Below are positions 21,996-60,412 of a stretch of 64,000 nt of DNA, piece by piece. The translations under genes and the position numbers were made by a program. Below the pieces are notes generated by a model. It did no database searches and had not been told where the DNA came from. It saw nothing but the letters and a program-made list of their open reading frames with translations. Numbering within the stretch: the stretch's first letter is position 1; the number at the start of each line of letters is the position of its first letter. The stretch comes from Congeria kusceri. Taxonomy: Eukaryota > Mollusca > Bivalvia > Myida > Dreissenidae. The DNA is taken from the NCBI GenBank assembly GCA_027627225.1, contig CM051028.1:18247701-18311700 (forward strand), in the 5' to 3' direction.

Positions 21996-24900
21996 TCATC
22001 TTAGATTTCCGGGTTTAGGAAAGAATGCGCCGAGTGTAACAATTTGCCTTTTGTGGAAAAGTTTACCGTGTGTATATTTAGGTTTTGGTTTTCCTGCTGA
22101 AGGCGCGTTTGCTGTTGCTTCGTTCTGTACGACTTTAGCAAACGTTGGTTTAGAAGTCTTTGGTGAGGCGGCTTTCAACATGTCTTGAGTCTCCGACATA
22201 TATGGAGACATCGGGACGAAACGAGCTTGTTTCTGTCCACCAGGAGAATATTGCTGAAAGTTCAAACAAACTTTACGCACTGTACCATAGTGTGTACTAT
22301 GTTAACTAATTATTAGTTTAGTAATTAGTTGTTAATTAATGGTGGCTCTTTTAATGCACGTTGTCTCGCCTGACAGTGAATTGTCTCGCCTTCAAACATT
22401 GATGTATATAATGCACATTATTACACAGGAAAATTACTTGCTATTAAGAAAAAAGACACCTGCAAATTCCTACATGAAATGCTTCAAACCGTTTATACCA
22501 TTATATATTTGGCAAACTTAAATAGTAAAATATTCAATAATATAGTAAATTGTCAGTGCATTATCAAAACAATCACAATTTAACAATTTGGCGAGTTGAC
22601 ATTTTCGGAAATCGGTCGCTCGACCAGCTCAATATAAAATACCTATCATTAAGAAGGTAGTTGGAAAGTTTTTAAAAGGGAGTTTTTAAAGACTGTAGAG
22701 AAATGCATAGTTAAGAGCTTGTTTGATAAGAACGCGAAGAACGAACAGTGCATATAGTTAAAAAATAAATTGTTGAACACGGTCTTAGTTTGATTATGAA
22801 TTTGTGGTAACGTTACAGCATATCGTCCACTTGGCGCAAAAATACCGTAAGTGACATGTGTATTTTTTACAGGAGAAGTAAAAAATTATTTAATAATGTT
22901 CAATGTGAATTTGATCTTTTACATAATATGTTTACAATACATTAAAAAGCCAGTTAAAGTGCAGTCTTAATTTATCTACAATTCAATTAGCGTACAAACA
23001 TATAAAATTATATCATAGTCCACTTACACATGCGCTGAATTTTGTACGCGCAAAATGCACAGAACAGCGATTTTGCTTCGACAAGTATAGCATTTACAAA
23101 TATTAACAAGGTACAATATTATTAATATCAGTATTATTATTATTATGTACTCATATCATCAATTAACTTTAATTAAATTTATTGTTTAGTGCGTTTCCTC
23201 AGCACAACTCTTGTGCAAGAATCTGGTAGCTACGTGCACTTACCATAATTTTAGCACCAACAATTTCGTCAATATTTGATTGTTGCAGAATTATGATTTC
23301 CGGGTGGAATTTAACCCTAACATTAAAATAGGTTATGAGAACTGGTATTGTTATAAACATTCTAAAGGTGTACACCGTAACCTTGCAATAAAATAGTTTA
23401 ACTATTAATATAACTAAGCGGTCTAACGAACTAATATAACTAACTATCCACTCACCATTCTAAAGGGCGGCAATCTCAGATTTCTCTTGGTTGGCCGATT
23501 ACATGCCCAGGTATCGTGTTCATCATCGCCCTCCGACCACGGCATAGTCTAGAAAAGATAAACAATTTAGTTCTGTGTGTGTTTATAATGAAATAAATCT
23601 CCAGTTTATATTTATATTATATTTAGAATAATTATATGTTAATTGTAGTATCTAATGTACATGTAAAAACGTGGATGTTAGAAAATACCTTCTGTGTTTC
23701 ATTCGATTCAGTGGTCCATACTTTTCGTTTAAAGTCATCGTCTCGTTTTTGTGGCAGCAAATTTAACGTGCGTCTATGTTTTGCAGGTTTCAATGCAAAT
23801 TCCGCCTTTACGGACTGAAAATACACCGAAATTCCCCCAAACTATTATACTGCATATCCCGTTATGCCTAAGTTGGGCATTTTCATTTCTGAAATGTTTA
23901 CTCGCATGGTGAGAATTTATGGTATATTGGTTTAAAAATTAACGTATACAGTTCTCTTTGTTTTACCCTGCAATATTTCTTTACATAGCATCATGTCTGG
24001 TAGATAATAAATAATTTTCTGCTATTTTATGATGTGCACATGTGTCCAATAACCACGAAATCCAGTATATATGATTCAAAAATACGTAACGTACCTTATT
24101 CGGTTTTGCTGTGCTGTTGTCAACGTTTTCTTTTAAACTTGGACTGACCTAGAAATGTAAATCTAGTACTTAAAAAGGATATGATATATACCTCTATAAT
24201 TCCTGTTTATCCTGTAATAAGTCACATTTAAACGTTATATTGCATTAACATATTCACTACGTATTCACGTTAAAGACATTATGCGTATGTTTTGGAAATC
24301 CTATGAGCAGAATACAAAACTCAGCATTGATATTAATATCGGTAGAGGCATTACGGAGTTCAATAATATTTCACAAAAATGCTGTCTCTATTATTACCCA
24401 GCAGAAAACGTGTTTGTAGCAGTCGTGTGACACTATAGGTCTAAACAGCGCTGACCTTTTATATTATATCGAATGTGACATGCATTCGTCTATTAACATT
24501 TTGTACCCGGATGTTTGATTATGTCTGTTTGTTTTTAAACAGTTGATTTCTTTAATGTGTTAGCTTCAAGAAATGCACATATTATTCACATATTATTCTT
24601 ACCAAACACTTATCGAATAAAAATATTTAAGGTATGCGATTTGCTGTTTTTTTTCCGTATTATTCTAAGCAAACCTTCGAGGGGCTTTTGGGTTTCACAG
24701 GACTCGTTTGAATTGCCTCCGAATACGATTTGATATGTCCAGGTTCAACATTGGTTTCTTTCTCATCATGTTTTTCTTCCTTGGGGTCATCGTTAACGTT
24801 CTTATTACATTCTTCAGATTTAGGTGACATCTGTAAAATATTCCAAATACGTTTATAAAATTATTTTAAGGCAGTGATGGGTGTACGTTTAAGTGATATT

Positions 24901-30900: not shown

Positions 30901-32856
30901 GGTGTTTTGGTATACAGTTTATAAGCGTGCAACAAGTGAACATATCTTGGAAGAGAAACGAAATGACAATATAGTGAAACTCGTGCTGAATCTGCAGCAG
31001 AGAAATTTAGGTTAACAATTTTATACCGTGTTATGTTAAACAGTATTCAATATTCAACACAGAAAACACAAACACGTTATTTTAGATTTAACTTGATACA
31101 ATCAACAATGTGTTTCTGAGTAGAACTATATTGCACACCTTTGATAAGAATATATCTAATAGATTAATATAGATCTATATTAAGTACACGTTAAGCATCA
31201 AGTTTGGCACAATAAATGTATCATAACATTTAATTATGTCATTTCAAAATGATAGCTGGAGTATTCTATTGTTCAATCAACCCTTTAAGATATATATTAT
31301 CTAAACTAAAATGTAATATTTAAATACATAATTACATAATTAAGCAATATTTTTACTTAAATAATGTTATAACAACACTATTTTTATAATACTTTATCAT
31401 GGAATACATTATTAATAACGTCTTATTAACTTTGCACAAAAGTCCACCCTAATTTCATAACCATAAACAAGTAAACTAAGTATATTGAAAAAATAAAATC
31501 ATTTACCAAGCCGGTGCCATCAAAAGGTGGAGCATAATGAACGTTTGGATATGATTGATTGTTGGCAGGGTACATATATCTTTGTTGGTTATCTTGAGGA
31601 ATGTTGCTGTAGGGCCACCAGCTATTTGTTTGCTGTGGTAGAGAATCGTAGGGTCCAATCCCATAGTCACGCGCTGGCATTGTTGTTGGTGAATCCCACA
31701 TGTTGGCATGCACATTCTTTAAAGTAGTTATGTATGTAAACTTAGTTTATGTTACAGTTCCTCGTTTAATAGTATGTTGTATTGTACTGCGAATATTTAC
31801 AAATACATTTTAGTTTATTGCAAATTTATTAACGTTGACATACCTGAGGGTAACACTTGTTTGCATACGGTGCTTGTGTCCAGTTGGAGGTCATATTGGT
31901 TTGATACGAGGAATTTAACACGTCGGAATACACTGGCGTATGGTTTTGTGTATAATCGATTACACTATTGTCCTGGTTACTGAAACGTGTAGAGTTATTC
32001 GGTAGCTGTAGTAATTCTTGGAAGATATTGAGAAAACGGTCATAGTTATCCACAACTATCTGATTTGTCTGGCTATCAAAAGTTGGAACGGTGTTATGTT
32101 CATGAACAAAACTTTGTTGAGACGGTTGCGGAAAGTCATAACATATGTCACGCTGGCTAAGGCCAGGCAATGTTGACTGCTGGTAGTTATATCCCGATGC
32201 CGTGCTCTGTGTATGGTTGAAACCCGGTATTGTAGTATGTTGCTGATCGAAACCCGACATAGAGCTGTTATGATGGTTACAGTCCTGCAACGATGACTGT
32301 CCATGTTTGGAACTTGTCATGGAAGTATGTTGGTTGCTTAAACCATTCAATACGTTCTGTTGATAGTTTAAACTTGTCAAGAGATGCTGCTGATTGTTTA
32401 AACCCGACAGGGAGGTTTGTTGATGGTTTACGCCTGATATGACATTGCTCTGCTGACAAGCATCTTCCACGTTTTGTAACAGCTGATATGATTCCTGTAA
32501 AACACGGATGAAGCAGGATTAGGGAGATTTTGTGTTTCGTGTGCGGACATACATAAACAACGATAACATTCGAATATATTAATTGCTGCATTATTTGTTT
32601 CAACATACACACTCCGTGACTTGCACACATATATATACACCGGTCTGAGATCTAAAGCCCAATGATATGTTATTAAATCATCCACAATTTGATGATGGGC
32701 ATTTATATACTAATTTGGTACCCATACTTGTGATTGGGCGGGACCAAATACTGTTTTGTCTTCAGCCTTGACTTTGGGGTGTTCAACGGCTTTTGCATCA
32801 GATACAGGTTTCTCTGAGTCGACAATAGTCCCTCTGTTATCAGTATATGCATTTCT
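21996..32856 (-). CDS. Exons 32-44: long polar C-terminal tail
   Basis: Exons 32728-32856, 31844-32494, 31507-31716, 30505-30624, 29415-29570, 25919-26005, 25386-25598, optional about 25010-25144, 24675-24830, 24095-24148, 23689-23814, 23456-23548 and 21996-22253. Nearly all are phase 0 to phase 0, so single exons can be skipped freely. The sequence is disordered: Q/N/S/H-rich, then P/S-rich ([13 protein letters not shown]), then charged ([12 protein letters not shown]). HELZ proteins also have a long disordered tail that recruits mRNA-decay factors; I did not find a clear PAM2 motif. The last exon ends in [12 protein letters not shown]. Confidence 0.65.
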
Positions 32857-35800
32857 CTATAAAAATATCAAAAGCGAGAGTATTGTAAAATAATAAAGGT
32901 CTATTCATATAATGTGTAATTTCACTGTATTCATGTTATCCCATGTCACGAATACGATTTAAAAACTATAAATTTTACAATAGGAAATATACAGTATTTA
33001 CTATAGAAAAGCTTGCAAAGACTTACCTGTTTGGAATGGAAGGGAAACGCGGTGGATAAACTCTTAGAACGAGGGTCTATTTCACACTTGAATTGAAAGC
33101 GTTTCCATTCAATCCCAAAGAAAGAAGCTGAATTGTTACTTTCCTCAATGTAACATTGCCAGAAGTTCCTATAACAAAAATTAGTAAAACAAGTGTGACA
33201 AATATGCCCGTTCTACATATTTGTACGTGTAGCCTGTATTGGTAGGAAGCAGCGTATCTTACACCCGAATAGTTTTATCAGGAAAGTTACCCGGATGTGA
33301 GAGTGTTTTTTGCTGGTCTGCTGCAGTCGTCGACGAATATGCAACAGTACTGCTAAATTATTAGGTGATATATATTTTAAATAATTTTCGTATGGTGGTG
33401 GGGACTTTGACGGTTATTGGGACTGGCAATTCCTTTGCACCGTTGTCTCGGGACGCTAGCGGTATTATAATAATATGGTATGTAGTGTTGAACACCTTAC
33501 GAGTGGAGGAGACCTACAGCTCGATATGATTGCAGCTTGACGCATGATTGCTGGGGAAGTATACAGAGTCAAAAACAATTGCTGGGTACTGAGAATAGTA
33601 ACAGTTGTAGTATCATGCCATAGTCAGGCTAAAGTTCTGTACCTGGTCTACGAGGGTCAAAGTATAGGTTACGGTACACGCTTGTATACCGTGTCAATTT
33701 GATGGCTTCAATCAAATAGTTTATCGTAACATTATGATTATAGTCATCTAAGCAACAACCCTTAGTAAATTAAAAGCCAGTAAGCGTAAGAAAATAGTAT
33801 ATTGTTGTTTGCGTTGTAGTACATGTTTTTGTTAAAATGTATAACCCGAAGCTCGGTGAAACGTTACAATAGCAGATAAATTCATTTGAAATAACTTGAG
33901 GTCTGTTTGACATTTTACCTGTAGGAATTTCAATGAATCGAAAATAAGATATTTCATGAATGAAAACATGACTTGGGACTAGCAGATGGTTTGTTTTATG
34001 CTGTTACAATACCTGCACTGTCCGAACCCACATATGGCAAACGGGTCTCCAATTGTAATGACCAGTGACTGTGCACGTGTTATGGCTGTGTTACACAGCC
34101 GGATATTGGACAGGAACCCGAGATCAAGCTCGTCGTCTTCATCTTCTGGCGCCTTTGTACGAACGGTGCTGACGATCATCACCCTAAACTCTTTTCCTGT
34201 ATGTTGAAATTAAAAGATATTGAAACTCCATTTGTGTTACAAGAAGAGAGACTCAAATTAAAACATATACATTGACTTTATCAATATCAAGAACATTTAC
34301 TAAATACTAACTTCAATGATAACATTATATAATAACATACTATATTAGGAGGAGTAGGTTTATAATAATACTACTAATAATAATACTAATAATAATAATA
34401 ACAATAATAATAATAATATCTTTGCTTTCAAAAGTTTACTTACATAAAACAACAACAGTATAAAATCATCACTTTACAGATGTTATATCGGGACAACGTG
34501 GGAAATGCGAGATGCAGGTCCAGATTTAAAATTCTGACAATATATATTAATTTTCATTTACACTCTTTCTTTACTGAATCGGAATATTTAACTGATGCTT
34601 ATAACAGAATCTTCATAATGTTTAAACATATATGACTCACCTTGCACATTTTCTATTTTCTCAACGCAAACAGACGAAAGCTGATGTTTACGAAGTTCTT
34701 GTCTGATGTACACAATCTGGAATATGAAAGTTAGTTTCGTTATATGAAAAAGCAAACAGTATCAAGTGTGACATTTTTCAGTTAGCATTGAGCATTTTAT
34801 AGCTAAAACATTTGTCAAATCACTTAATACATGACCCAAACATAAAAAGTAATAATTAGGAAATTAATTAAATAGAGCAGTTAGATTGAAACTGAAACAC
34901 ACAATAACACATTATTAAAGAAATTATTCAAAAAAGTCTAAGATATGCAAAATAAAAAACCCGCATAGTAAGGTGCGAATACAGTGCACATACATAAATT
35001 TACTTACTTGTAAGTGATATGGAGCCACGACGCAAATGTTTTGCTCTGAAAACTCATTCCATTCTTTTGGCCAACGATGTTTCAAATATTGGACTTGCTC
35101 GACCACTTCTCGAACCTAGGTTATATTAACGTAAATATAAGTATTATTACAATTATAAAAATAATACAGTTTTAAAGAATATTTATAATATAAATTTAAA
35201 ATTACTAATTTTAATATTAAACACGAATGTGTTAGAGGTATCATTTGCATCCCAACTGAAAACAGAAAATGTGCGTTTTGTAATCCAGAAGAATTCATTA
35301 ATTATCCAGACCTGAATGCACCAAGTTTATCTACCTCCCCTGTTCAAGGGATTCAGAAATCTAAATAAGACGGAACTAGGTTCAATCATGCTTGGTCTTT
35401 AAAATAAATAAATACAAGAACTGATTATGGATACGAAATTTAATTGTAAAATTTTGATAAGCGAAAATAATCGCTAATTTTGCAAATCTTACAGGGGCTG
35501 ACGATATACAAAGTCAGATACACTTTTATGTATGCAACTTTAATACAAAGCCCATGATTTTGTCTTTTCCGTTGAATAATTAACTGCGTCATTTACGTAT
35601 GCTTGGCATACACATTAATACCACTAATTTATATATTTGCATACTACCGTAAGTAACATTTCGTACCAAATAGTAACCAGTATTGTTAATATTCTATTTA
35701 ATTTTGGACAAAGCTTTAAACGATGGATATCGATATTTCTAATATATACCCAGACATCGGTTCAGTTAAACGGATTTTGTCTGATATCTTCACAGTAGGC

Positions 35801-47800: not shown

Positions 47801-50149
47801 ATGTTAAATGTTAACGGACGCAATGACGCTTTGACGCACGCATACACGACGGACGAAACGCCATCGCATATTAACAACTTTCACATAAAGTAAACCATCA
47901 AATCATCTGTCAATATGTAAATCATTTTGAATACTTACTTAGGAGTAAATGGAATTATATTATAATATCCTGAATCCCATTGTTTTCCGTGGAAAGTCAT
48001 ATATTCTTCTTTAATTGTTTCAATGTCGTCTATAGGTTTCATCGTAACGCACAGTGTCTTGTGTACAGGTGCACATCCGAAATCAAATTTTACCCTTTGT
48101 CGAAAAATGCCATAACAGCCAGAATTAAAATGTACCTGGATATAAATTAATGATATGTATAAACTTTTCTTATCGAATAATGTCTTCGAATATGTAAAAT
48201 GTAAAATATATGGTGTCCATCAACGTTCAAAAGAGTAAAACAGAGTAAAAAATAATTTGTTATTAAACAGTTTGAACGTTTTGATTACATGAACTAATAT
48301 TGCCGTTGCGAACACCAAAATAATAACGAACACATAGTACATGTATACAAATATGATTTACTACTATATATGACATACGGTTGTTTGTCGGAGTAAGCCA
48401 ATGACCACATAAATAAAGATACCACAGCTTTCTGTGCATGTATAATTAACGTCAGAAGGGATTATTGGATACCTTTATTGTATACTTGAAATTTCCAGCT
48501 CCAAGCCTTTCATTTGTCCATTTCTGGCACATACTTTCGATACCAGGTACAGCTTTACCACCTTCGGTAATTTCGGAAATGTTGAAATTTTCCGCATTAA
48601 CTCTATCCAGCAATGCTACTTCTTTCAAAGGAATCTAAAATATATGGAGATTCATTGTTATGATTGAATGCAACAGTAGTAAATGTTGGTATTAGAATGC
48701 CCAAACGAAACCAAAACTACAACTTTAAGGAAATGCAGCAAAGAAAATCTCACCAAGCTGTTAATCTGAAAGGTCCATGTTTCGTCATATTTCTTACTAC
48801 TTGTAATAAGCAACAGTTCTCGTTCTTCGGTTACATGGAAACAATCAATATTCTGCTGAAGTATAAAGGTTATCAAATCGTTTCAAAATTGCTGTTAGAA
48901 ATTAAACCAACTGTTTGATTAATGTCTATTTCTTATTGCAATTTAAATAAAACAAGATGACAACATGAGCTTAAAGCGCTCACCTGATTATCAATATCTG
49001 GGCCTTGCGGTTTCAGTGAAGAACATATTTTAAGTCATTTTGCTATTTAAGTCTATATAAACCGTGTGACGCTTTGGGCGTGGCCAGTTTCCCCCAGGAC
49101 AATTTTAACAATCTTTGTAGAGGAACACTATACAATGTTAAACACCAAATACGAAACCTCTGGACATTCGGTTCAAGAGGGGAAGATTTTTACACCAGGG
49201 GCATAATTTGAACAATATTTGTAGAGGACCACTATACAATGTTGAACACCAAATACGAAACATCTGGCCATTTCGGTTTAAGAGGAGATGATTTTTAAAG
49301 TTCACTTGCCATGTAAGTGTATAGAAACCGTGTGATCCCCGGGGCGTAGCTTATTTTTACCCCAGGGCAATAATTTGAACAATTTTTTTAGAGGACCACT
49401 CTACAATGTTACATGCCAAATACGAAGCCTCTGTGTTAAAATTTTAATTTTGATTCTAGAAAGAAAAACAAATTGAACAAAATAATGCATCATGTTAATA
49501 AAAAGTTCAGCAAATCGACGATTGATTAGATTTAGTTACAGCATGGTCATCATTTCTAGTCACAAGTACATTTTACTCCAGGGGCTTCATTTTAACTTTC
49601 TTTGTAGAGGACCATTATACAATGTTACATACCAAATACGAAGCCTCTGTGTTAAAATTTTAATTTTGATTCTAGAAAGAAAAACAAATTGAACAAAATA
49701 ATGCATCATGTTAATAAAAAGTTCAGCAAATCGACGATTGATTAGATTTAGTTACAGCATGGTCATCATTTCTAGTCACAAGTATCAAATCAATTTACAA
49801 ATAGGAACCATAAATGCAATTACTTCAGGAAATCCATTGAACTCATCGGTCAGCGTCTTAGCACATTTTGTTTCATCACATTGCTCTTTGTGTATTAAAG
49901 GCCTGGAATAGAAAGAGAAACACGTAACAAGAATTATGTATAAGTTTAGAAGCGTGCTAAATCCACATGGTCTGTTTCTTCTTTGTTAAATGGACATTTT
50001 ATATATATATGAACATGCATAATAAAATACAGTAATAAAACTACTACTACTACCACCACCCCCACTACAACAACAACAACAACTACTTCTACTACTACTA
50101 CTACTTCTACTACTTCTACTACTACTACTACTACTCCTACTACTTCTAT

Positions 50150-50184
<35 letters not shown>

Positions 50185-53100
50185 GTGTCATTACAATAAC
50201 TTCTACTTCTAGAAGGCCTTGATTTTGCAGCTACAGAACAGGTTCTTGTGACAATACATAATGCCTTATGATCATTACATCACAGGCCTGGTTCGTAAGT
50301 GGGACACATAACACTTCCTATCATGATGGTAAGCACTTTGTGACATCTTATAGCAGAATCCGTCTTTGCTTGTAGAATATATGACCCGCACACAAACATT
50401 CATTCTTATAGCTAGTTTTTGACATTTAGCTACAGGACTGGGTCTTGTGCGCAGCATGTCATCACGTGTTGATACATATTTAAACAAACCTATTTTTAAT
50501 TCCTTCCAAGTCCGATTATAGTATTATACGGACAAATATTTGATGTTTGACCATGAAAAGTGGCATTGACTTTTCAGCTACACACCTGGTTCTTACGCGC
50601 GGCAAGCCGTCTCATATTTTAATCACTTTTGCCAAGTTATTCGAAAATCATTCCATTCGGGACAAAATTATGCTCCGGACTACTTGTTTGGCTTTATCCT
50701 AATATCTGACATTTGAATTTTAAATGTGACCTTGACCGGACACCTAGAAACCTGGTTCCTGCATGCGACACATCCGCTCGTGATGATGGTCACTTTGTGC
50801 TAATTTATAGCAAAATCCCTCTTTGCATGTAAACTACCCTGCCAAGTGGTAAAATTCATTATTATATGCTCCAGGCAAATATTTCACCTTCGGCCTATAC
50901 TTCTGACCTTGACCTTTGATATACAATAATAATAACTGTACAGTCAACAAAATACAAACCTTTTCCAGCCAAGATGATTTTCCTCTTCAATCAAATCTGA
51001 GTAGTCTGTTCTGTCAACAATTACTTTTGGATCTACAAGTTCTAGAGACAAACGGAATAAATCAATAGTAGATCAACTGAATGAACTAATATATACCTGA
51101 AATACATGTAAACTTCTTTTGTAAAGTAATACTTAATTATATGTTAAAACTCTGTGCAGATCTGTGCCGATCACACATGATAATAATTTGAGGACAATTT
51201 TGTTCTTTCAACATTGACAAATGACGTATTAAGGTTTTCAGCACAATCTAACTCGAAAGTCTTCCTTAAAATGGTATATTTTCAAAAAAAGATTGAAATT
51301 GTATTACCTGCATCATCGTCGAATATAGCGGTTGTGGAATTCGCTCCGTTTGTATCAGAATCAAAATTAATTCCTTTCTCTTCTATTTCAACTACTACTT
51401 CTTCTGCTGAAACGTTTTCTGCTTCTTCTTCTTCTTCTTCTTCTTCTTCTCCTCCTTCCTGAATATCAGCGGCATGAATACCATTAGCAGCATGAATATC
51501 CCACAGTTTAGTTTCTGGATCTGTATTACATGACGTTACATTATTTGAATAATGATCGTTATTTTGATGCAGACCAGATGAATCTAGAGATATGTTTATT
51601 TCGTCGTCATGTAATTCGTCAATGATTCCAGTTACCATTGGATCATCTGATTTCTCGTCAATGGCAGCATCTCTGTGCAGCTTACCGAACATTTCACACT
51701 TTTGGTCTGATGAGCAACATGAAGTATCGTCTCTATCAATTGTTCTTTGATTGTCCAATGCATTTGAAATGTTAGCATGACCTTGATGTCCTCCGTCGCT
51801 TCGATCAAACTGTCTGATGATCATGGTTTCTCTAACGTCATCCGCTGCGTCGTCAATTTGAGACGTGTTTTTATTTTCTGTGTGTGCTGCCAAGCGTTCA
51901 AGTTTTAATTCATTACCATCATTAGTCGAACAATATACAGTTTCCTCCTGTACAGCAGAGGCATCATCTATATTGACCGTACGCCTTGTCTGTTGTTCTA
52001 CTTTTGTCACTTACTTTGGCTGTTCTTCCACTGTCAAATATAATTATACACTAGATTGAAAATAAAATGCAATTAATAACCAGAAATGATATTTATTTGA
52101 TTAACATTTGTTTAATTAAAGTACAAAAGCAATGTTGAAAGTATGTAAGCAAGGTATTAGCATAGAATAACCCGGCGTTATATGATCTTTAATCCATTTA
52201 TTAATTTCTGTCGTGATACAAACGTCAACACAATAATCCTTAACTTCGCTACAAATACCTTTATTCAGAGATGCTTGCTTTGTAAATGTATTGTCATCTA
52301 TTGCCAAGCTTTCATTTGGTATTAAGCCATCGTCCAGCAATTTACACGGGTCGAATGAAGGTTTGCATATTACATTAGTTTCTATACTGTGTTCATTTCC
52401 TCGAACTATGTCCATGTCGAAAGTTAGGTGTACAGAACTACCAGTCAATTCGTGTGTCACAGTACTTAATTCGCTCCTTTCTGCAACTTCACACATATTA
52501 TCTACACATTTATGACCAGAGCACTGGGTTGCAAGGTCAACTTTCGCCTCATTTCGAATATAAAGAATATTATCTTCATTTTCCTCAAATTCTTCTTGTT
52601 CTTGTTGTCCACAATGCATTTCTGGCACGTCACATTCTGCAATAAAGCATTTTAGTATGTAAGAAAATCTATGTGCTATAATGAAGTTTAGTTTAGCTTA
52701 ATATAAAAAAATATCTTACCGTCTTCAAAAAATAGTCCTTTCTTCCGTGCATCCGTATTTAACAATTTTCTTTCCGTGCATATTTCTAAACCGTCTTTTT
52801 CTTCCGTTTCTGTAAGATAGGAATTTCATGCAGAAAATGTATACATGCGTTTGACCTTTGTTGTTACACGCATACATGTATATCTAAATTTGACTATGAA
52901 GAACTTACCAACGTTATCGTCTCCAGATCTGAATTCGCCTGATGAGTCGCTTGCATCGCTTATCTGTGATTCAGCACCTAATAGAAAATATAATTATCTT
53001 TTTATTAATTATTTTACTAACTATTATTTTACGGGACATCAATTCCTGTCACAAACACTCTCGCACGCGCACACATTTGCAACAAAAGCGCGTGGCCAAA

Positions 53101-56100
53101 CTTGTTAAACTTACTTATGATAACTTACATTCACAATCGTCGTCCGATATCGGGTCGTACGTGAATTCGGAAAGAGCTGTCTGTTCCTCTAAAATATTAA
53201 ATTGCCTTGAACAGATTTATTATTTATATTTTTGAACAATATAAACATGATCTACCAATTCGTAAAGATAGTTATTTCATTTGCTATAAATTACGCATTG
53301 CAATAGTTTTTACATGGAGTAGTATAATTCATATTTGCAATGGAACAGCATTAACTAAGACATTAAACAACTTTATATATAGTCAAGCCGGGAATAATAT
53401 TGATTTACCATACCCACCCGCAATATTCATTTCTGTGTTTTGATCTGCATTGAAAGAGTCCACACTGGCAAAATGTAGCACGGCGGATTTGATAGCATCG
53501 TATGTGATTTGTCCTATGCGCCGTTTCACCTTTAGAACTGCAATACGAGATTTTGACATGTAAGCTGCCCACAATAACAATTATTATTGATACGCACTCA
53601 AGGTAGATTTATAGTATTGTACTAGCGGATTGTAATGTTTTTGGACTGTATGAAAATACCTTTATATTGGGAAAGCAAACCGTAAAATACATGTGTAAAC
53701 ACAAAATGAAATGGTTGTCTTACGGAATTTATCCAGACATTTGACAAAATCCTTTTCGAAAATGACAACTACTAAGTCAACGTTTTCGTATCCTGGCCGT
53801 TTCTGAAGTTCCAACACAAAGGGATGGAAATGGGCATCCAGTTCGCCCGACATGTATTCGTTAATCAAGCCCACGAGAGATTGTAAGGAATAACACTGGA
53901 TATATATTGCTATGCATTCATGTTTTACGTCTTCAATATCTCTGGAATCACCTGAAAATTAAAACAAAGTTAATGAAAACGTTTTCGAAATTAAAAGTCC
54001 TATCAGCGTGATCATCAAAGTCTGAACGGCAATAGTGTTAGTAAGTGTATATTGAAATCCTGCAGTATTTGTAAGAGGCAATATGTACTTCCAACTTTAA
54101 GCCGCTAAAAGTCTGGCATAATTTGGTCCAGAAACATTAAAAACGATCAGCTCTATGTTGAATAAGTTGATTAGGTATAATATGTGTGACAATGTAAATT
54201 GAAATAACTGCTTAGCTTACGAGTGCTCATCTGACAGACTACTTCGTATTCTGACAAGACGCATGGTAGACTTTTATTAATGAAATAAAAGAATTACTGA
54301 AAATGGACAATGACCAACGATCAGTTTAAGATTACTTGTTATTCCTTGCATAGAATGTGTAAGTGCAGCAACTACAGATGTAGGTATGTCATTATTGTAG
54401 CCACAGTCTTCGCCATTTAAAAATTTCCGCACTTCTATAAAATAGTTGAATATCGTCTCTTCTTGCTTTTCACCCACGTTCTTCAATTGTATAACTAGAC
54501 GAATATCTGAGAAAAACAGTTATAATTAATATGGATGCGTATTAAGAAATTCATAAACGGGTAATTTAACACGAAAATTGGTTTGGTGCAAGAAATAACT
54601 CTCGTATGTACCGCTTTTAGGTTTTAAAAAGTTTCGATACACAAATATGTTCATGTTATTTTTGAAGTTATCCCAAGGCCTTTCCGTTTTCGTGTTTTCA
54701 TTATTAACCACTAAACTGACAGGATCGTCAGAAACATATAACAGCATTCTTCCTTATACAGTTCTGTCTGTCTGATTGTAAGTTTCATACCTGGAATGGG
54801 AATTTTATTCAGATCAACGTGGTCCCTGTTTAGTACCTTCTCTTGATTGAGAACTTCAGACACTTCTGGAAGGTAAAATACAATACCGATGAAAAAAGAC
54901 AATTATAATGCACATCGTGGAATAAGACCGCGTCATAAAGAGCCCTCTTTGAAGCTCTCACAATACTAGTACTTCTTACTGTATGAACTATTTACAATGT
55001 ACGTGTAATTCCGTAAGAGGTTACAGGCAACACTAATTTGATTGAATGTATCGCTGTTCAAGTTTGATCACATTTATAGAACACAAACCATGCTACCACG
55101 ATTTTTAATTGTCGGTTAGAAGTGTTGTTCCGAGTATTCAGTCGATCAACAGTAATAGTAACCTGTATTACCTTGTTCTATGTCTTTCAGTGTTTTTCCA
55201 TGCTCGTCTAATGTCTGAAAATATTGATCAAACCTGTTTCATTAAGAATATATGAAGTGTTTCATTGATTTGTACCACTTTTACATTTTATAAGCATTTG
55301 CACTGATACACAGACATCCTTTTTTTCATTTAATAGGTACATAATATGTTTAGAATTTTCTTCATATGGATTGTTATTTATAGATCTGTGTTCCACACTG
55401 TCCTGATTTGCAACACACAAACTAATGCACACATATTTTATGCTCATTTATCACATGCCATACCTTGTTTTCCGCGTAATACAACCATTACGAATATTTT
55501 TATTTTACACGTGTGTAAAATAACATTTTGAGCGTTTTCACTGGCTACATATTCTTTGACTGACTGATGTTTTACTCGTCATTTTAAATGCAGTGACAAT
55601 TCACTGATCATCAAATGATGTGTCAAAAATAGCACACAGTTGTTTTCCTTGTTATTCAAGTACATTGTGCATAAACAGTTTGTAGTTTTGAAAAAAAAAG
55701 GCTTGTCACAGGATGTGAAGTATGCCCCGGAAGAATATGCTTGTCAGAGGAAGGCAACACAATGTCAGTTACAATGACGCTTCCAACAAAAAAGAGTTAT
55801 GGTCCTTGCTCTCTGCACTTCCTCTCAGCAACTATCATCCTCTATCATTATATAAAGTTTCATTTGAATCCCTTCAATACTAATGGAGTTATGCTCCGCA
55901 CAAGAAAATAAAAGAAAGGGCAATAGCTCTTAAAATATTGAAGAAAGAATTATGGTCGTTGTGCTCTGCACTTCCTCTCATTGTCCTCTATCATTACTTG
56001 AGGTTTCAATTGCATCCCTTCAATACTATTTGAGTTATGCTCCGCGTAAGAAAAGTAATGCTTCACATAAGGAAATAAAACAAAGGGCAATAACTCCGTA

Positions 56101-59100
56101 AATATTAAAGAAAAAGTTGCGATCCTTGTGCTTTTCACTTCCTCCATTGTCATCTATCATCATATGAAGTTCCATCTGAATCCCTTCAATTCTAATGGAG
56201 TCATGCTCCGCACGAGACAATTAAAGAAAGGGCAATAACTCTGTAAATACTGAAGAAATAGTTATGGTCCTTGTGCTCTGCACTTCCCCTCATTGTCCTC
56301 TATCATTATGTGAAGTTTCATTTGAATCCCCTCAATACTAATGGAGTTATGCTCCGCACAAGAAAATTAAACAAAGGACAATAACTCTGTAAATACTGAA
56401 TTTAACAAATAAATTGTCATAAAACTCCATATAAGAATCGTTTTATTGCAAATGCTGTTTCTTGTAATTCAAAACAAATCTTAATTTATCTCGCTGCTGG
56501 ACTGAGTGCTATACGAAATCATATAATTAAATATAGCAATAAGGTTTATGAAAATAGTAATGTTAACTTATTTTGGTCAATAAAAAATTCATCTGAAGTT
56601 ATTTCGAAAATTGAGAAGAGTAATTATACAACATTGCACTTCAGTACATATGATTTCTCATCTTTATACACCACGCTACCGCACAATCTTATTAAAGATA
56701 AACTTTTAACGCTCAGTTAAAAAACTTTTGCAACTTAGCTGTAAATAACAAAATAGCATTGTTCACTAATGAAGTATTAGATAAATGTGTTATTTTGATT
56801 TGTCTAGATTTATGTTCTGCTCTCAATTTTCTTTTAGACAATTTATTTGTTAAATTCAATGGTAAAATATTTAAGCAAATTATAGGGGTTCCTATGGGCA
56901 GTAATTGTGCACCACTTATACCAGATCTATTTTTATTATGTTATGAAAGAGATTTTTTGCTTAGTTTGTCTAAAGAAAGACAGTTAAGTTTAATTCAAAG
57001 CTTTAACAACACTAGAAGATATATTGATGACGTGTTAAATATAGATAACCCTCATTTTGAAAAATATGTCCAAATGATATACCCCAAAGAACTAACAATA
57101 AATAAATCCAGTTCTTCGAGTACTGATTCTGCATTTCTAGATTTACGTCTAACGAATAGTAACAACAAAGTGCAAACTAGTCTGTATGACAAACGTGATG
57201 ATTTTAATTTTGATATTGTTTATTTCCCTTTCGTATGGCAGTTATATTTCCAAGTTAGTTCGTTATGCAAGAGCCTGTTCATGAGTACATGATTTCAACA
57301 AACGTAACTTTTCTCTAACTAAGAAATTATTCAAACAAGGATGTTTGTTTCATGAACTACGCAAAAAGTTTACTACGTTTTTTTACAAATACTTAAGTTT
57401 GGTTTCTAGATATGATGTTTCCTTAAAATCTTTATTGGTTAATGGAATGTCTCACCCATCATTTAATAGCGATGTTTTAAAACGGTTACGTAAGTGTAAA
57501 TATGCAAAATTGGATGCTAAAAATGTTATTTATAAACTGATACAGTCTTATCAATCAAACGGGTATGATTTGTCGATACTCAGTAACACCTGCCTGTTAG
57601 TTGTTTTTTAGAGAGAATTTCTTTTAACTGTAAATAATTATCTATTCTCGTTGGGTAAACAGCTTTAATATATATCGATTTAATTTAAACAGTAACAGCT
57701 TTAAAACCTTTCCCCAAACGCGTTATAACAGATTAACAAGTATGTGTCAACGGCACATGGACACCAAAATATGAAATTTGGTATTTTATTCACGTTTTGT
57801 AGAATTAACAATTTTTCATTTTCTGTTTGCATAAGTACATGCAGTAATGATCGTTTTAGTTTAATATTTAACTTCTATTTCAATTTTATTAATTATAAAT
57901 ATTAAACATATACAACCAAGCTACGTAATTTGTCCTTTTACACCAACGGCTTCTTCCTGAGATGCACGTCGATGATCTGGGATTTGTACTATATGATGCT
58001 AGGTCTTGAAATCTTGTCAACAAGAAGGGATTTAGTTAATAATTGTATTTACTTCATTCCATCGTGCCTCAAAAAGTTGCGATTCTGTTGCTATGGTGAA
58101 CATGCAACCATTGAGTAATTTCATTGTAATTCAATTCTCGTTTATTACTATTTAATTTGAATTGCAATGCTATGAGGTTAAAGTTTATTTACAAGTGCGT
58201 GTGTTGTGATTAATTATGGGCGAAGTGTGAGGTTCGGCATGCCTTTAAACCGGTTAAAGCCCCCAATGTGTTATTGCATTGACCGTTCCAAGGCGGTGAC
58301 CCCAGCTTTAATCATTTTTGGTGCATGTGTGTCTGTTGTGTGATTTCTATGTTGTCAATTGTGTATTTTCCCTTTTAAGTGATTATTTCTGGGCTAAGTG
58401 TGAGGTTTGCATGCCTTTAAACAGGTTTAAACCCCCAATGCTTTGCATTGACCGTTCCAAGGCGGTGACCCCAGTTTTAATCATTTTTATGCTGTGTGTT
58501 GTGTTGTATGTAATGTCCTGTATTGTAAAGGACCAACGGGTGGTAATCCTGATGATGTCTCTGGAGTTTCATTATTCCTATATTTAAAAATAGAGACAAT
58601 CGATCCAATAAATGTGTATATTGTAGACTGCAAAAAGATATTTACCTTGACAACTGTTTCAAGTAGTGCATGGGTTGTTTTCGTCCGACCTTTCAGAATT
58701 TCCAGGTCCTGTCTATGGCCTTTTAAATCTTCCTCCATCTGTTTGATGTAGGCTTCAAGAGAACCATAATGTTTGTCCTGTACCACCTTTAAATCAGCAA
58801 GCTCTTTGTGCAGGTAAAAGTCTTTGTTGAAATCAGCACTATCTTCCGAATCCGGTGTATTAGTATCTTCGCTACCCTCTAGATCTTTTAGCTCTTCGTC
58901 GATTTCTTCTTTCCTTTCTGCTATGGCGTTTAATGCCAATTTCCTAACGGCAGCATTGTGCTCAGATGTAAGTAATAGCTTGTCATTTCGCAGCTTCGTG
59001 TGTGAGGAAAAACAAGGTGACATAAAACACAACGTATATGTTATACTCAAAAACTATAATATTTGTCGAAGCATATCATTGTTCGTTTCCATTTATATCA

Positions 59101-60412
59101 ATACTTCTACTTGAGATACTTTTTGCATGATACACAAATAAGAAAACGTTTTATATATCTTAAATATACAAAAGTAGATTACACTATGTTTATAACTGAA
59201 ACGTTTTTAAATATATATTACGCATAAAATTAAATTGGTATCGTGTTACGATTATAGAAAAAAAAAGCGCAATCCATATTTTATTGAAACGATTATGTAA
59301 TTGATTAATGACTGAGGCATCTTACCAACAGTACTAGATAGCAAACGCAACAACATACAAAAATATTGTCCACTCATATGATCATATGGTATTTAAACTA
59401 AAGTAAGTGCCGCAAACGGCTTGACATAAAATTGTTCGACAAACATACATCAGCTGTAAGATAGCAGTTTGTTTGCAATGCATTTCAAATATTATGTTTT
59501 ATTAACATTAATAACTATCAGTGCAGAAAGATTAAATACAGTAACTATTTACTTTTTCGATCTCTTCCAGAGATCTTATCATACGCCAAAATAGGGTCAC
59601 TTAAAATGGCCTTTATTAAATTAAACACATCGTCGACCTCTTTATCACCAACTTCCAGTTTACTGGAGTGCAGAAGCCTATTTCGTGTTTTTATCATCTG
59701 AAATGAAACGTCAAACAATAGCAGTATTTTGCGATATGTTTAACTTTCAACATTAAGCACTTACAGCTACATTAAGGTACGTAGCTTGGTTAATAATACC
59801 ATTTTCGACCAAACAGAACAGGGTATAGAAAAACGACTAAACCAATAGCAACATATACACATGTACCTCTTCTAAGGAATGTGCTGACGAAAACTGTTGC
59901 CTTATCTCTGTATTGCTAAGGCATACGCTAATCAACCCGGATGCATCCGTTGAGCTTGTTGTCCCATTTCCAAAGAGCCCTGTGCCGTTGGCGAAACACT
60001 TGCCGAATTCACAATGGTTTTGGCACCATTGTCGCAAGTCACAATTTTTTAAGTTTGGTTGATTCGAGACATGTCTGACGATTGTAAACTCTAACAATTG
60101 TCCACATGCACCATTTTGTGGACATTTTCGTTTGCCATCAGGTTTTAAACAATTGCACCCTTGTTTGGACTTTTTCTGTAGACATCTAGTTTTGTCGTGA
60201 TTTGGAAGCAGATTGTCAATGCTACATTCACAACAATTATATTTGTGTTTCAGTTTGCATTTATGCTCCACCATCAAAAGGAGTGACTTATGCTGATCTT
60301 TGATTTTTTCGTCCACAAAGACGTTTAAACCATCGTGGAGATAGCGCAGACACATACAGCACTTAACCCAATTTTTAAAATACCCGTTCTGGTATACCAA
60401 GCAGTCTGACAT
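21996..60412 (-). CDS. HEPN / TRADD-N-like / HELZ-like SF1 RNA helicase, about 44 exons
   Basis: Forty-three exons plus one 8-nt microexon can be chained on the minus strand from the ATG at 60410-60412 to the stop at 21996-21998. Every junction uses GT..AG and keeps phase. The model is 7,971 nt (about 2,656 residues), ignoring one in-frame TAA at 52011-52013 and leaving out an optional exon near 25010-25144. Domain order: Cys/His-rich region, HEPN, coiled coil, TRADD-N-like, acidic linker, HELZ-type helicase, polar repeat-rich tail. The start follows an acceptor 'tttttcag' with 8 bases of leader (60413-60420), so an upstream non-coding exon is likely. The helicase family call is firm from its motifs. 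The fusion itself rests on splice phases and needs transcript support. Confidence 0.72.
22260..23455. other. Intron between the last two exons
   Basis: AT-rich, no element recognised. Confidence 0.35.
25010..25144 (-). CDS. Optional or terminal exon of the tail
   Basis: An acceptor 'tttttgcag' opens a frame [20 protein letters not shown] that continues with [20 protein letters not shown]. Neighbouring exons need a phase-0 donor, but the only in-phase GT is a poor one (ACT|gtcaaa). Skipping the exon keeps frame. Reading on gives a stop at 24905-24907, so this could be an alternative last exon. Confidence 0.4.
26150..28380 (+). mobile_element. Tandem-core element split by a hAT-type insertion
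   Basis: Same family as 7611-9446: units with 'ggtttccgctcaataacttg', 'atgaaacttcatacatagat' and 'gacctcgcttgggattgcat' about every 140 bases, preceded by GC-rich 'gggcgggcgggcg' text. The array is interrupted exactly at 26523-27527 by a TIR element. It lies in the intron between 26005 and 29415 of the helicase gene. Confidence 0.7.
26523..27527. mobile_element. Non-autonomous hAT-type element, 1,005 bp
   Basis: Left end TAGGGCTCCAACGGGTC, right end ACCCGTTTGAGCCCTA; the two are imperfect inverted repeats. Both sides are flanked by a perfect 8-bp duplication GTGGGATT (26515-26522 and 27528-27535), and removing the element plus one copy restores the host repeat text 'gtgggattgcatatgggg'. Eight-bp duplications and TAGGG ends are hAT hallmarks. 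Subterminal 'gggtcgggtcgg' repeats may be transposase binding sites. No transposase gene. Confidence 0.88.
28390..29260 (+). repeat. Tandem-core repeat, units of about 150 bp
   Basis: Units contain 'tttttagctc...ggccattttgtgcagtg', 'cggaaccat', 'ggtagaggaccatcca' and 'gaaaatatgac'. The end reads 'cggttttcgccaatctattt' and 'gccgaaatttttcgttg'. A second member of the family, same orientation, is at 44330-45250. Confidence 0.65.
29820..30212 (-). mobile_element. Repeat element with terminal hairpin, copy 1
   Basis: Contains 'gctagacgaaacggtaaaat' twice, 'ggttgg(a/g)tgatatgggtgg' twice, a GGAC/GGAC-rich stretch, and the end hairpin 'tatgcctcctccatcaagat' then 'accggaggcata'. An inverted copy lies at 41026-41450. 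Confidence 0.65.
31844..32494 (-). CDS. Exon with about nine ten-residue repeats
   Basis: A 217-codon exon. Residues after VISG fall into ten-residue units such as [40 protein letters not shown] and [10 protein letters not shown]. The consensus is a hydrophobic residue, N, x, Q, Q, then a Ser/Thr-rich half ending in G or S. At DNA level this is a degenerate 30-bp tandem repeat. Such Q/N-rich arrays can promote self-assembly or condensates; that role is inference. Confidence 0.75.
33027..41950 (-). CDS. Exons 23-31: SF1 UPF1-like helicase core, HELZ type
   Basis: Exons 41741-41950, 40352-40519, 40065-40153, 39391-39509, 39008-39304, 35008-35115, 34641-34716, 34013-34196 and 33027-33168. Motifs in order: Q-motif-like NQNQRDAI, Walker A GPFGTGKT (about residues 1478-1485), motif Ia [15 protein letters not shown], motif II FLDEAAQ (about 1606-1610), motif [13 protein letters not shown], motif [22 protein letters not shown], motif [17 protein letters not shown], motif [10 protein letters not shown] (about 1833-1840), and closing [18 protein letters not shown]. 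All catalytic residues are present, so ATP-dependent RNA helicase or translocase activity is expected. The order and spacing are those of HELZ/HELZ2. Confidence 0.9.
34340..34420. repeat. (AAT)n microsatellite
   Basis: An imperfect run of 'aataataata' with 'actaat' interruptions, intronic. Confidence 0.8.
35700..38340 (+). pseudogene. Decayed LINE (L1/Tx1-like) with RT and C-terminal zinc-finger remnant
   Basis: RT text in shifting frames: [32 protein letters not shown], then a break, then [20 protein letters not shown] and [13 protein letters not shown]. Farther on come W-N-N-F-V...DEEWKCIL and a Cys/His cluster [16 protein letters not shown]. This is an RT followed by a C-terminal zinc-finger-like segment. 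Several frameshifts and stops make it dead. A hAT-type element (35982-36775) splits the RT. It lies in the intron between 35115 and 39008, opposite to the host gene. Confidence 0.75.
35982..36775. mobile_element. Non-autonomous hAT-type element, 794 bp, inside the LINE RT
   Basis: Left end TAGTGATTGGA, right end TCCATCATTA, imperfect inverted repeats, plus a subterminal pair ACTGATTAATCA / TGATTAATCAGT. Flanked by a perfect 8-bp duplication GAAAACTC (35974-35981 and 36776-36783). Excision with one duplication copy rejoins the RT as ...ENS|LNSAL. No transposase frame. Confidence 0.85.
38341..39000. other. AT-rich intron
   Basis: No supported feature. Confidence 0.35.
41026..41450 (+). mobile_element. 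Repeat element with terminal hairpin, copy 2 (inverted relative to copy 1)
   Basis: Begins 'tatgcccccggcatcttgat' then 'gcgggaggcata', followed by a 'ccgtccgtccgtccttcc' run, 'agattttaccgtttagtcta' and 'tatcacccaacctca' twice. This is the reverse complement of the 29820-30212 layout. Confidence 0.65.
42479..49902 (-). CDS. Exons 15-22: N-terminal half of the helicase region (pre-core and 1B-like)
   Basis: Exons 49824-49902, 48754-48855, 48473-48634, 47939-48135, 43299-43472, 42953-43157, 42755-42865 and 42479-42600, all in phase. Recognisable text is [21 protein letters not shown] followed by [15 protein letters not shown], which matches the 'LTPENYKxKMHxLLxxEE...RFN' signature just before the helicase core of HELZ and HELZ2. 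The segments with [17 protein letters not shown] and [20 protein letters not shown] fit the beta-barrel insert of UPF1-like helicases. The 43.5-47.9 kb intron holds a broken LINE and repeats. Confidence 0.75.
43560..45900 (+). pseudogene. Decayed LINE (RT fragment and C-terminal region), split by a repeat element
   Basis: Fragments on the plus strand: [20 protein letters not shown] and [14 protein letters not shown] (RT box with ADD), [37 protein letters not shown]. After a 0.9-kb interruption follow [40 protein letters not shown] and a Cys/His cluster [19 protein letters not shown]. Many stops and frameshifts. Intronic, antisense to the helicase gene. Confidence 0.7.
44330..45250 (+). repeat. 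Tandem-core repeat inserted in a LINE
   Basis: About five units of 'aactttaacgcaaattctat', 'agctctagtggccattttgt' and 'gcagtgaggcggaaccattt', ending in a C-rich 'cgcccgcccgccagcccgcc' stretch and 'gagatttttcgttgcaac'. Same family as 28390-29260. 'gttaaca(a)gagaa' occurs at both LINE junctions and might be a target duplication. Confidence 0.65.
45960..46190. repeat. Degenerate AT-rich tandem repeat
   Basis: 'aatacaatct(a/t)t(g/a)a' and 'tgtataa(a/t)g(g/a)tgtat' recur at about 115-base spacing. Confidence 0.4.
46850..47890 (-). repeat. Tandem-core repeat, about 165-bp units
   Basis: About five units with 'gaccataaggcgatgctaca', 'aggccttgta(t)gttt(c)aga' and 'ccctggcgcggggccatttt', then an end rich in 'gacgcacgcatacacgacgg'. 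The open frame at 47588-47893 is repeat translation. It is intronic, next to the 47939 donor. Confidence 0.6.
48960..49640 (-). repeat. Inverted member of the window-start repeat family
   Basis: Begins 'agcgctcacctgattatcaa', the reverse of the 'caggtgagcg' end, then units with 'aagtctatataaaccgtgtg', 'gtagaggaccactatacaat' and 'accaaatacgaaacctctgg'. These are reverse complements of the units at 1-900. Confidence 0.65.
49417..49786. repeat. Perfect direct duplication, two copies about 154 bp long, 216 bp apart
   Basis: 'ccaaatacgaagcctctgtg' through 'cagcatggtcatcatttcta' then 'gtcacaagta' occurs twice (about 49417-49570 and 49633-49786) without a mismatch that I can see. The second copy ends about 40 bases from the donor of the exon at 49824. 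It could be a recent duplication or an assembly artefact. Confidence 0.75.
50040..50186. repeat. (ACT)n / (CTT) microsatellite
   Basis: A long imperfect 'actactact' run with 'acttct' and 'ccacca' variants, intronic. The poly-Val frame on the minus strand is an artefact of it. Confidence 0.9.
50205..50935. repeat. Degenerate tandem repeat, about 180-bp units
   Basis: Recurring 'gctaca(g/c)(a/g)..tggttcttg(t/c)gcg', 'gaca(c/t)at...tcatgatggt' and 'ctttgtg'. A molluscan-style tandem-core repeat, intronic. Confidence 0.5.
50960..53188 (-). CDS. Exons 9-14: acidic disordered linker, contains an in-frame TAA
   Basis: Exons 53129-53188, 52909-52977, 52720-52809, 52172-52636, 51308-52030 and 50960-51041. 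Composition is strongly acidic and Ser/Asp-rich ([16 protein letters not shown]; a run of Glu coded by a GAA repeat at about 51419-51451). The large exon 51308-52030 is 723 nt, enters in phase 1 after CCG|G and leaves in phase 1, exactly as required, yet contains TAA at 52011-52013 (codon about 796). Its upstream codons read VEEQPK, and after the TAA comes [10 protein letters not shown]. The last exon is [19 protein letters not shown], then joins the helicase. No known fold is recognised in the linker. Confidence 0.55.
53418..54506 (-). CDS. Exons 6-8: TRADD-N-like domain
   Basis: Exons 54336-54506, 53724-53951 and 53418-53537, all phase 1 to phase 1. The middle exon reads [31 protein letters not shown], then [20 protein letters not shown] 'C-xS/T-L-x-L...Y-SGxLxxxF' segment, then alternating hydrophobics and a D/E-x-x-x-C motif, resembles the TRADD N-terminal domain family common in molluscan and cnidarian immune proteins. 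The similarity is from memory. The domain likely serves as a protein-protein adaptor. Confidence 0.5.
54791..58993 (-). CDS. Exons 3-5: coiled-coil linker
   Basis: Exons 58646-58993 (116 codons), 55172-55214 and 54791-54865. The first encodes long charged helices ([56 protein letters not shown]) with heptad-like spacing, continuing through [14 protein letters not shown]. It probably mediates self-association between the HEPN and TRADD-N-like parts. The intron between 55214 and 58646 holds a tandem repeat and a Penelope-like element. Confidence 0.6.
55700..56400. repeat. Tandem repeat, about 150-bp units
   Basis: Four to five units of 'cttgtgctctgcacttcctc', 'attgtcctctatcattat', 'gaagtttcatttgaatccct' and 'ggagttatgctccgcacaag'. 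Intronic; the minus-strand frames at 55950-56220 are repeat translations. Confidence 0.75.
56410..58490 (+). pseudogene. Penelope-like retroelement, RT remnant
   Basis: Plus-strand frames read [20 protein letters not shown], then [80 protein letters not shown] and [15 protein letters not shown]. After a frameshift come [20 protein letters not shown] and [15 protein letters not shown]. The G(V/I)PMGxNCAPL and YIDD boxes place it near Penelope-like or related RTs. Stops and frameshifts mean it is dead. Two 3' blocks at 58215-58488 may belong to it. Confidence 0.7.
58215..58488 (+). repeat. Two direct copies of a 3' block, about 177 bp apart
   Basis: 'gggcgaagtgtgaggttcgg' / 'gggctaagtgtgaggtttgc' is followed in both by 'catgcctttaaac(c/a)ggtt', 'cccccaatg' and 'gcattgaccgttccaaggcg' then 'gtgaccccag(c/t)tttaatc'. 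This is the probable tail of the preceding retroelement, duplicated. Confidence 0.7.
59000..59550. other. Intron holding the microexon
   Basis: AT-rich, nothing else supported besides the 8-nt candidate at 59326-59333. Confidence 0.35.
59326..59333 (-). CDS. Candidate 8-nt microexon
   Basis: Exon 2 ends in phase 1, whereas exon 3 must start in phase 0. A perfect fix is the octamer TACTGTTG between 'gctatctag' and 'gtaagatg' on the minus strand: 1 + 8 bases restore the frame and add Ile-Leu-Leu. Inferred from phase only. Confidence 0.45.
59553..60412 (-). CDS. Exons 1-2: Cys-rich N terminus and DZIP3-like HEPN domain
   Basis: Exon 1 is 59867-60412 (182 codons) and exon 2 is 59553-59697. The N-terminal text [19 protein letters not shown] is followed by many Cys/His pairs ([30 protein letters not shown]), which may bind metal. 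The second exon gives [20 protein letters not shown] then [18 protein letters not shown] at about residues 187-192 fits the R-x4-H motif of HEPN domains, and the following pattern is that of the DZIP3-like HEPN proteins expanded in invertebrates. HEPN domains with this motif often cleave RNA; activity here is inference. Confidence 0.65.

What the first reader, a model, noticed from the sequence alone, without database searches (positions are those of the whole stretch)
21996..60412. One gene joins a HEPN domain, a TRADD-N-like adaptor domain and a HELZ-type RNA helicase
Forty-plus minus-strand exons chain without a phase break from a Cys-rich/HEPN N terminus (RNRLLH), through coiled coil and a TRADD-N-like segment, into a full SF1 helicase ([26 protein letters not shown]) and a 750-residue disordered tail. 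I know no vertebrate protein with this order. HEPN (RNA cleavage), TRADD-N (death/immune signalling) and HELZ/HELZ2 (RNA decay, antiviral response) all point to RNA-based defence, so this may be a mollusc-specific RNA sensor-effector. The function is inference.
Basis: partly seen in the sequence, partly recalled or inferred. Interest (0 to 1): 0.9.

Follow-up and report, generated by a model that had tools for sequence, protein, structure and literature searches.

The report
Bivalve HELZ helicase with HEPN head
A bivalve gene joins a predicted RNA-cutting (HEPN) domain to an mRNA-decay helicase of the HELZ type; related clam and mussel genes share the fusion, but the copy in this window carries a small deletion that breaks its reading frame.

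Summary
The minus-strand gene at 60412-21996 is real. It encodes a CXorf38-type (Pfam DUF4559) HEPN domain with RNRLLH, a coiled-coil stretch, a conserved ~150-residue domain, an acidic linker, a complete HELZ-type SF1 helicase and a low-complexity tail. One-protein architecture is supported by annotated proteins of the same order in Dreissena polymorpha (one locus) and Mya arenaria (three loci), and by three further distinct loci in this genome. Fusion helicases form one clade, and so do their HEPN exons, so one ancestral fusion is simplest. Two paralogues diverged under purifying selection in every module tested (omega 0.21 overall). A canonical HELZ lies elsewhere in the genome. Corrections: the HEPN is not DZIP3-type. 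TRADD-N is not established (one sub-threshold hit among eight members; none in the window). There is a phase break: window exon 2 lacks 11 bp that a 97-99% identical copy 274 kb away, a paralogue and the Dreissena protein have, and the normal splice form stops at codon 234. Differences between the two copies look neutral, so this copy is probably decaying or a null allele. RNA cleavage and an immune role are inferred, not shown.

The parts
21996..60412 (-). Whole gene, start codon to stop codon
   Evidence: Two spliced models and controls
59867..60412 (-). Exon 1: first part of the CXorf38-type HEPN domain with the Cys-rich insert
   Evidence: PF15112 1.4e-5 on this exon alone, 6.1e-13 spliced with exons 2-3
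59553..59697 (-). Exon 2: HEPN motif RNRLLH; lacks 11 bp relative to the second copy, so the normal donor leaves phase
58646..58993 (-). Exon 3: last part of the DUF4559 match, coiled-coil-like
54791..55214 (-). Two short exons (55214-55172, 54865-54791) linking coiled coil and next domain
   Evidence: Identical in both models
53409..54506 (-). TRADD-N-like conserved domain (exons 54506-54336, 53951-53724, 53537-53409); TRADD-N identity inconclusive
   Evidence: 75, 33 and 38% identity to P0001, P0003, P0105; PF20694 hit only in P0001, below cut-off
50960..53188 (-). Acidic low-complexity linker; several exon borders uncertain
   Evidence: Models differ here
42479..49902 (-). Region flanking the helicase on its N side, shared with HELZ (eight exons)
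   Evidence: Part of the region aligned to HELZ proteins at 92-100% query coverage; 70, 32 and 32% identity to P0001, P0003, P0105
34013..41950 (-). SF1 helicase core: [26 protein letters not shown]
   Evidence: AAA_11 and AAA_12; exons identical in both models
33027..33168 (-). Exon after the helicase; PAM2 place reads LSTAFPF, not a PAM2 match
   Evidence: Pattern search
21996..32856 (-). Low-complexity S/T/N-rich tail; several borders uncertain

Best explanation
The locus is one member, probably a decaying or null copy, of a heterodont-bivalve family of HELZ paralogues whose N terminus carries a CXorf38-type HEPN domain, a coiled coil and a TRADD-N-like domain. Working hypothesis for intact members: the HELZ helicase and tail dock on RNA and on the decay machinery (PABP through PAM2 where kept, CCR4-NOT through the tail); the coiled coil and N-terminal domain bring molecules together; paired HEPN domains then cut the bound RNA. 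A regulator that ordinarily recruits decay enzymes thus carries its own nuclease, most likely for intracellular defence against viral or transposon RNA. Shown: domain order, conserved motifs, shared ancestry, past selection, lesions in this copy (about 0.95 for the architecture). Inferred: RNase activity, pairing, substrate and immune role (about 0.4).
For: Same order in P0001 and three Mya loci and at gene 2, C16 and C3 here. Fusion helicases one clade 100/98 (23 rows) and HEPN exons one clade 100/100 (14 rows). RNxxxH in 8 of 8 members. Omega gene 1 to gene 2 0.21; HEPN 0.13, helicase 0.17. Canonical HELZ present separately at C8. HELZ binds CCR4-NOT and PABP and causes decay of bound mRNA (PMC6769256, abstract and introduction). 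CXorf38-type HEPN predicted active and tied to defence (PMC3710099, passages). For decay of this copy: 11-bp deletion; N 39, S 10 between copies.
Against: No activity, expression or transcript data. TRADD-N unproven. The window, P0001 and gene 2 lack a strict PAM2 and the window and P0001 lack the CCCH finger. P0025, an annotation that matches the P0003 locus, lacks the TRADD-like segment, so that part may be optional or mis-annotated. The deletion could be bypassed by a weaker donor.
Confidence: 0.55

Rival explanations
1. Gene-model artefact: a HEPN gene and a HELZ gene lie side by side and were chained by eye.
For: No transcripts were available; two introns are long (47939-43472 and 39008-35115) and linker borders are uncertain.
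Against: The same order occurs in four annotated proteins of two other species and at three other loci here, with both parts monophyletic; a chance neighbourhood would not be kept.
Confidence: 0.04
2. The family acts in ordinary host mRNA decay, with the HEPN domain as an RNA-binding or pairing module rather than a defence nuclease.
For: HELZ itself regulates host mRNA decay (PMC6769256, introduction). Purifying selection in all modules tested.
Against: RNxxxH kept in 8 of 8 members. Several paralogues with tandem duplication and decay are more usual for conflict genes than for core decay factors (inference).
Confidence: 0.3
3. The window copy is functional: the 11-bp deletion is an assembly error or is bypassed by splicing.
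For: In-phase weaker donors exist in exon 2; the two copies may be unmerged haplotypes from a difficult region.
Against: An 11-bp gap is not a typical single-base error (inference); 39 N and 10 S differences between copies reject omega 0.21 (p 5e-7) and fit 1.0.
Confidence: 0.2

Closest known systems
HELZ (helicase with zinc finger)
   Same: Same helicase core and N-side flank; 5 of 8 fusion members keep a PAM2-like motif by pattern
   Different: N terminus is HEPN, coiled coil and TRADD-like; strict CCCH pattern only in P0003 and P0121, none in window, P0001, P0105 or the fetched C16 and C3 stretches
CXorf38 family HEPN proteins (DUF4559)
   Same: Same HEPN family with RNxxxH and Cys-rich insert
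   Different: Published partners are dsRBD, NACHT, ankyrin, CARD and DEATH (PMC3710099, passages), not a HELZ helicase
Invertebrate TRADD-N fusions with HEPN or with Mov10
   Same: Mosaic of HEPN, a possible adaptor and RNA helicases in marine animals (PMC8195603, section 11)
   Different: HELZ is not named in its main text; its source-data tables of architectures were not available to me
RNase L (recalled)
   Same: HEPN-type RNase activated by pairing
   Different: No helicase; ankyrin-based 2-5A sensor
HELZ2 (recalled)
   Same: HELZ-like SF1 helicase linked to antiviral response
   Different: Two helicase cores and an RNB domain; neither seen here

Membership tests
CXorf38/DUF4559 HEPN | PF15112 profile match | tested here: met
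   6.1e-13 on spliced exons 1-3
CXorf38/DUF4559 HEPN | R-x4-6-H motif | tested here: met
   RNRLLH in window; RNxxxH in 8 of 8 members
CXorf38/DUF4559 HEPN | Cys-rich Zn-ribbon insert | tested here: met
   Cysteines of the insert invariant in P0001, P0003, P0105 and shared by the window; metal binding not tested
CXorf38/DUF4559 HEPN | RNase activity | not testable with these tools
   Needs protein
DZIP3-type HEPN | PF18738 profile match | tested here: not met
   Not listed at E <= 10
TRADD-N superfamily | Profile match (PF20694 or related) | tested here: inconclusive
   P0001 149-aa segment 0.0042, below cut-off, and not its 75-aa piece; none in the other 7 members; positive control exon on C7 8.8e-7
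TRADD-N superfamily | RRM-like fold | tested here: inconclusive
   Model mean pLDDT 48.5
HELZ | UPF1-like SF1 helicase with DEAA box | tested here: met
HELZ | CCCH zinc finger before the helicase | tested here: not met
   No strict pattern in window model or P0001; present by pattern in P0003 and P0121, by Pfam only below cut-off (P0121 0.0014; P0003 0.071)
HELZ | PAM2 motif after the helicase | tested here: not met
   None in window; pattern present in P0003, P0105, P0121, C16, C3
HELZ2 | Two helicase cores and an RNB nuclease domain (recalled) | tested here: not met
   One core by exon order; no RNB family listed for P0121, P0105 or P0003; the window tail was not scanned with Pfam

The most novel reading that the evidence does not exclude
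A HELZ-type decay regulator has acquired its own HEPN nuclease and an oligomerising immune adaptor, making a single-chain, helicase-guided RNA-cutting defence protein that arose once in heterodont bivalves and then diversified by duplication and loss.
Probability: 0.3. Interest if true: 0.8.

Novelty: new variant of a known kind. Interest (0 to 1): 0.56.

Why it matters
HEPN domains are common in animal immune proteins, but what brings them to RNA is often unknown. Here the partner is a helicase whose human relative binds PABP and CCR4-NOT (PMC6769256), so a specific mechanism can be tested, and relatives without the window's lesion are annotated in Mya and Dreissena. The family is also a case of one fusion followed by duplication and decay. 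I found no paper describing it. Searches: HELZ with HEPN, DUF4559, CXorf38 (the latter listing 10 of 26), TRADD-N with HEPN, HELZ2 with bivalve, helicase with zinc finger with oyster, HEPN with helicase with bivalve (listing 5 of 6), and the four locus names (no paper). Most listed papers were seen only as listings, and the architecture tables of PMC8195603 could not be read.

Tried and rejected
TRADD-N by profile: eight members scanned, one sub-threshold hit. In the reverse test an eight-sequence profile gave the genome's own PF20694 exon on C7 3.3 bits; 18 of 2000 shuffles scored higher. Structures of the TRADD-like and HEPN segments (three sequences each) had mean pLDDT 48.5 and 49.7, so no fold search was run. 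No solved structure matched either convincingly by sequence. Protein search with exon 1 alone found nothing. The profile search did not return two of its own three rows (P0001, P0003), so its short list says little about distribution; one search listed 120 of 584 hits, so other fusion proteins may be hidden. The PADLOC scan of P0001 and P0121 hit only within the helicase regions. Two-gene artefact, DZIP3-type HEPN and HELZ2: rejected as described. One search ended with an error after its results were printed; its exon list was typed by hand into (63 of 78).

Full report
What is there. The minus strand from 60412 to 21996 holds a long many-exon gene. A spliced-gene search with a coding model not trained on it scores 411 on this strand, against 78 on the opposite strand, 145 reversed, 92 complemented, 91 and 89 on the two strands of 0.2-20.5 kb, and a mean of 49 (maximum 74) for 20 second-order Markov sequences. 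A second model, guided by the Dreissena polymorpha protein P0001, gives the same start and main exons and runs to the last codon before the same stop: 22 of 26 domain-bearing exons are identical. Borders in the acidic linker (52636-50960) and in much of the tail are uncertain, and both models put doubtful tiny exons there.

Domains. Exons 1-3 match Pfam DUF4559 (PF15112) at 6.1e-13, the CXorf38 family (exon 2 was ended at 59629 in that translation). That DUF4559 is the CXorf38 family is recalled; the HEPN survey PMC3710099 (passages) describes CXorf38 as a HEPN domain with an inserted Zn ribbon, classed as active. The motif reads RNRLLH here, and RNxxxH is kept in eight of eight family members. 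The helicase is complete: AAA_11 1.6e-22, AAA_12 1.4e-33, motifs [26 protein letters not shown].

TRADD-N. The domain at 54506-53409 is well conserved (75, 33 and 38% identity to P0001, P0003, P0105), but its identity is open. PF20694 is hit once, below cut-off (E 0.0042, 17.3 bits against 23.7), in the 149-aa segment of P0001. It is not hit by the 75-aa piece of P0001, nor by the window, gene 2, P0003, P0105, P0121, C16 or C3. The reverse test gave 3.3 bits, with 18 of 2000 shuffles higher, and the structure model was poor. I call it TRADD-N-like and no more. One annotation that matches the P0003 locus, P0025, lacks this segment altogether.

One protein, one fusion. P0001 (Dreissena LOC127875362, 2632 aa, 73% identical over the 800 aa searched) has the same order, as do Mya arenaria LOC128221916 (P0003), LOC128222086 (P0105) and LOC128222124 (P0121). 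In one search, 4 of the 120 listed hits (of 584) carry DUF4559: P0001, P0003, P0025 and P0105; the other 116 list no DUF4559. In this genome the same exon order occurs at a paralogue on the same contig (gene 2), on C16 (39204581-39221926) and on C3 (87476984-87457052). The helicases of the eight members form one clade (100/98, 23 rows), and so do their HEPN exons against six other DUF4559 exons of this genome (100/100, 14 rows; six of 129 places, no other species); an earlier tree with six members agrees (100/100, 34 rows). Trees are drawn with a midpoint root, and the member branches are long. The nearest outside row is P0002, which carries the HELZ CCCH and PAM2 patterns. A canonical HELZ, 71-90% identical to P0002 outside the tail and 55% in it, lies at C8:68403134-68447474. 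The fusion is therefore an extra HELZ paralogue. Both species with annotated members are Myida.

Selection. Between gene 1 (window) and gene 2 copy B, dS is 0.54 and dN 0.11 (omega 0.21): HEPN 0.13, coiled coil 0.17, TRADD-like 0.30, N-side flank 0.26, helicase 0.17; with copy A omega is 0.20 (linker, tail, one short exon and three exon ends left out, and codons with stops or gaps). The modules were kept together by selection for most of their history.

The window copy is damaged. A region 274 kb away on the same contig is 97-99% identical over the gene. Relative to it, window exon 2 lacks 11 bp; gene 2 and P0001 also have the longer form. Through the normal donor the frame stops at codon 234; weaker donors would keep phase but shorten the HEPN domain. 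The other copy has a 1-bp and a 5-bp deletion in two other exons. Of 25 gene 2 exons compared, copy A has frame-breaking indels in four and a further stop in one, copy B in three; two of the indels are shared, one of them close to an exon end. Between the two gene 1 copies, 43 exons were compared and four with indels dropped; the other 39 show no stop and 39 non-synonymous against 10 synonymous differences. That rejects omega 0.21 (p 5e-7) and fits 1.0; domain exons alone give 16 and 4 (p 0.001). Some of the 39 exons lie in the uncertain linker and tail. The copies may be unmerged haplotypes or a recent duplication; I could not tell which. Assembly error is possible for the 1-bp change, less likely for 5 and 11 bp (inference).

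How it may work. HELZ carries a CCCH finger, an SF1 core and a PAM2 tail, binds PABP and CCR4-NOT and causes decay of bound mRNA (PMC6769256, abstract and introduction). PAM2 is kept by pattern in five of eight members (P0003, P0105, P0121, C16, C3), while the window and P0001 lack it and the CCCH finger. The simplest reading is a HELZ platform that carries its own HEPN nuclease, with the coiled coil and TRADD-like domain pairing molecules. The immune setting is inferred from published bivalve expansions of HEPN and TRADD-N proteins (PMC8195603, passages and section 11; PMC9646362, passages), from DUF4559 in 45 of 99 Corbicula NLRP proteins (PMC8298618, passage), and from 129 DUF4559 places in this genome, some with stops.

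Comparison and novelty. TRADD-N with HEPN, and TRADD-N with Mov10, are published combinations (PMC8195603, section 11), so the principle is known. The CXorf38-HEPN plus HELZ combination is not described in the listings and passages I saw, though it sits in databases under uninformative names. I rate it a new variant of a known kind.

Noticed in passing
G000 C5:17973000-18037000 against the window; C5:18215771 against 18490075: A stretch including this gene and gene 2 is present twice, about 274 kb apart on one contig, 97-99% identical where compared: unmerged haplotypes or recent tandem duplication.
   Followed up: partly
C5:18203743-18228753 and 18480188-18502957 (L024-L028, L030, L031, L033, L034): Paralogue gene 2 with the same exon order and its own frame-breaking indels.
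   Followed up: yes
G000, clusters on C3, C15, C17 and others: 129 places match DUF4559 at E <= 0.001, a large lineage-specific expansion; 0 of 14 prokaryote control genomes match.
   Followed up: no
C3:86429551-86431300, C3:86717141-86717797, C7:541716-543465, C8:39702380-39708573: Further HELZ-like helicase matches that may be more family members; whether a HEPN exon precedes them was not tested.
   Followed up: no
56406-57608 (+) and 45168-45767 (+): Open frames inside introns that read like reverse-transcriptase remnants of transposons (own reading, no profile run).
   Followed up: no
7795-9371 and 27520-28348: Repeat blocks with units about 145 bp apart, one of them in an intron of the gene's tail (alignments).
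   Followed up: no
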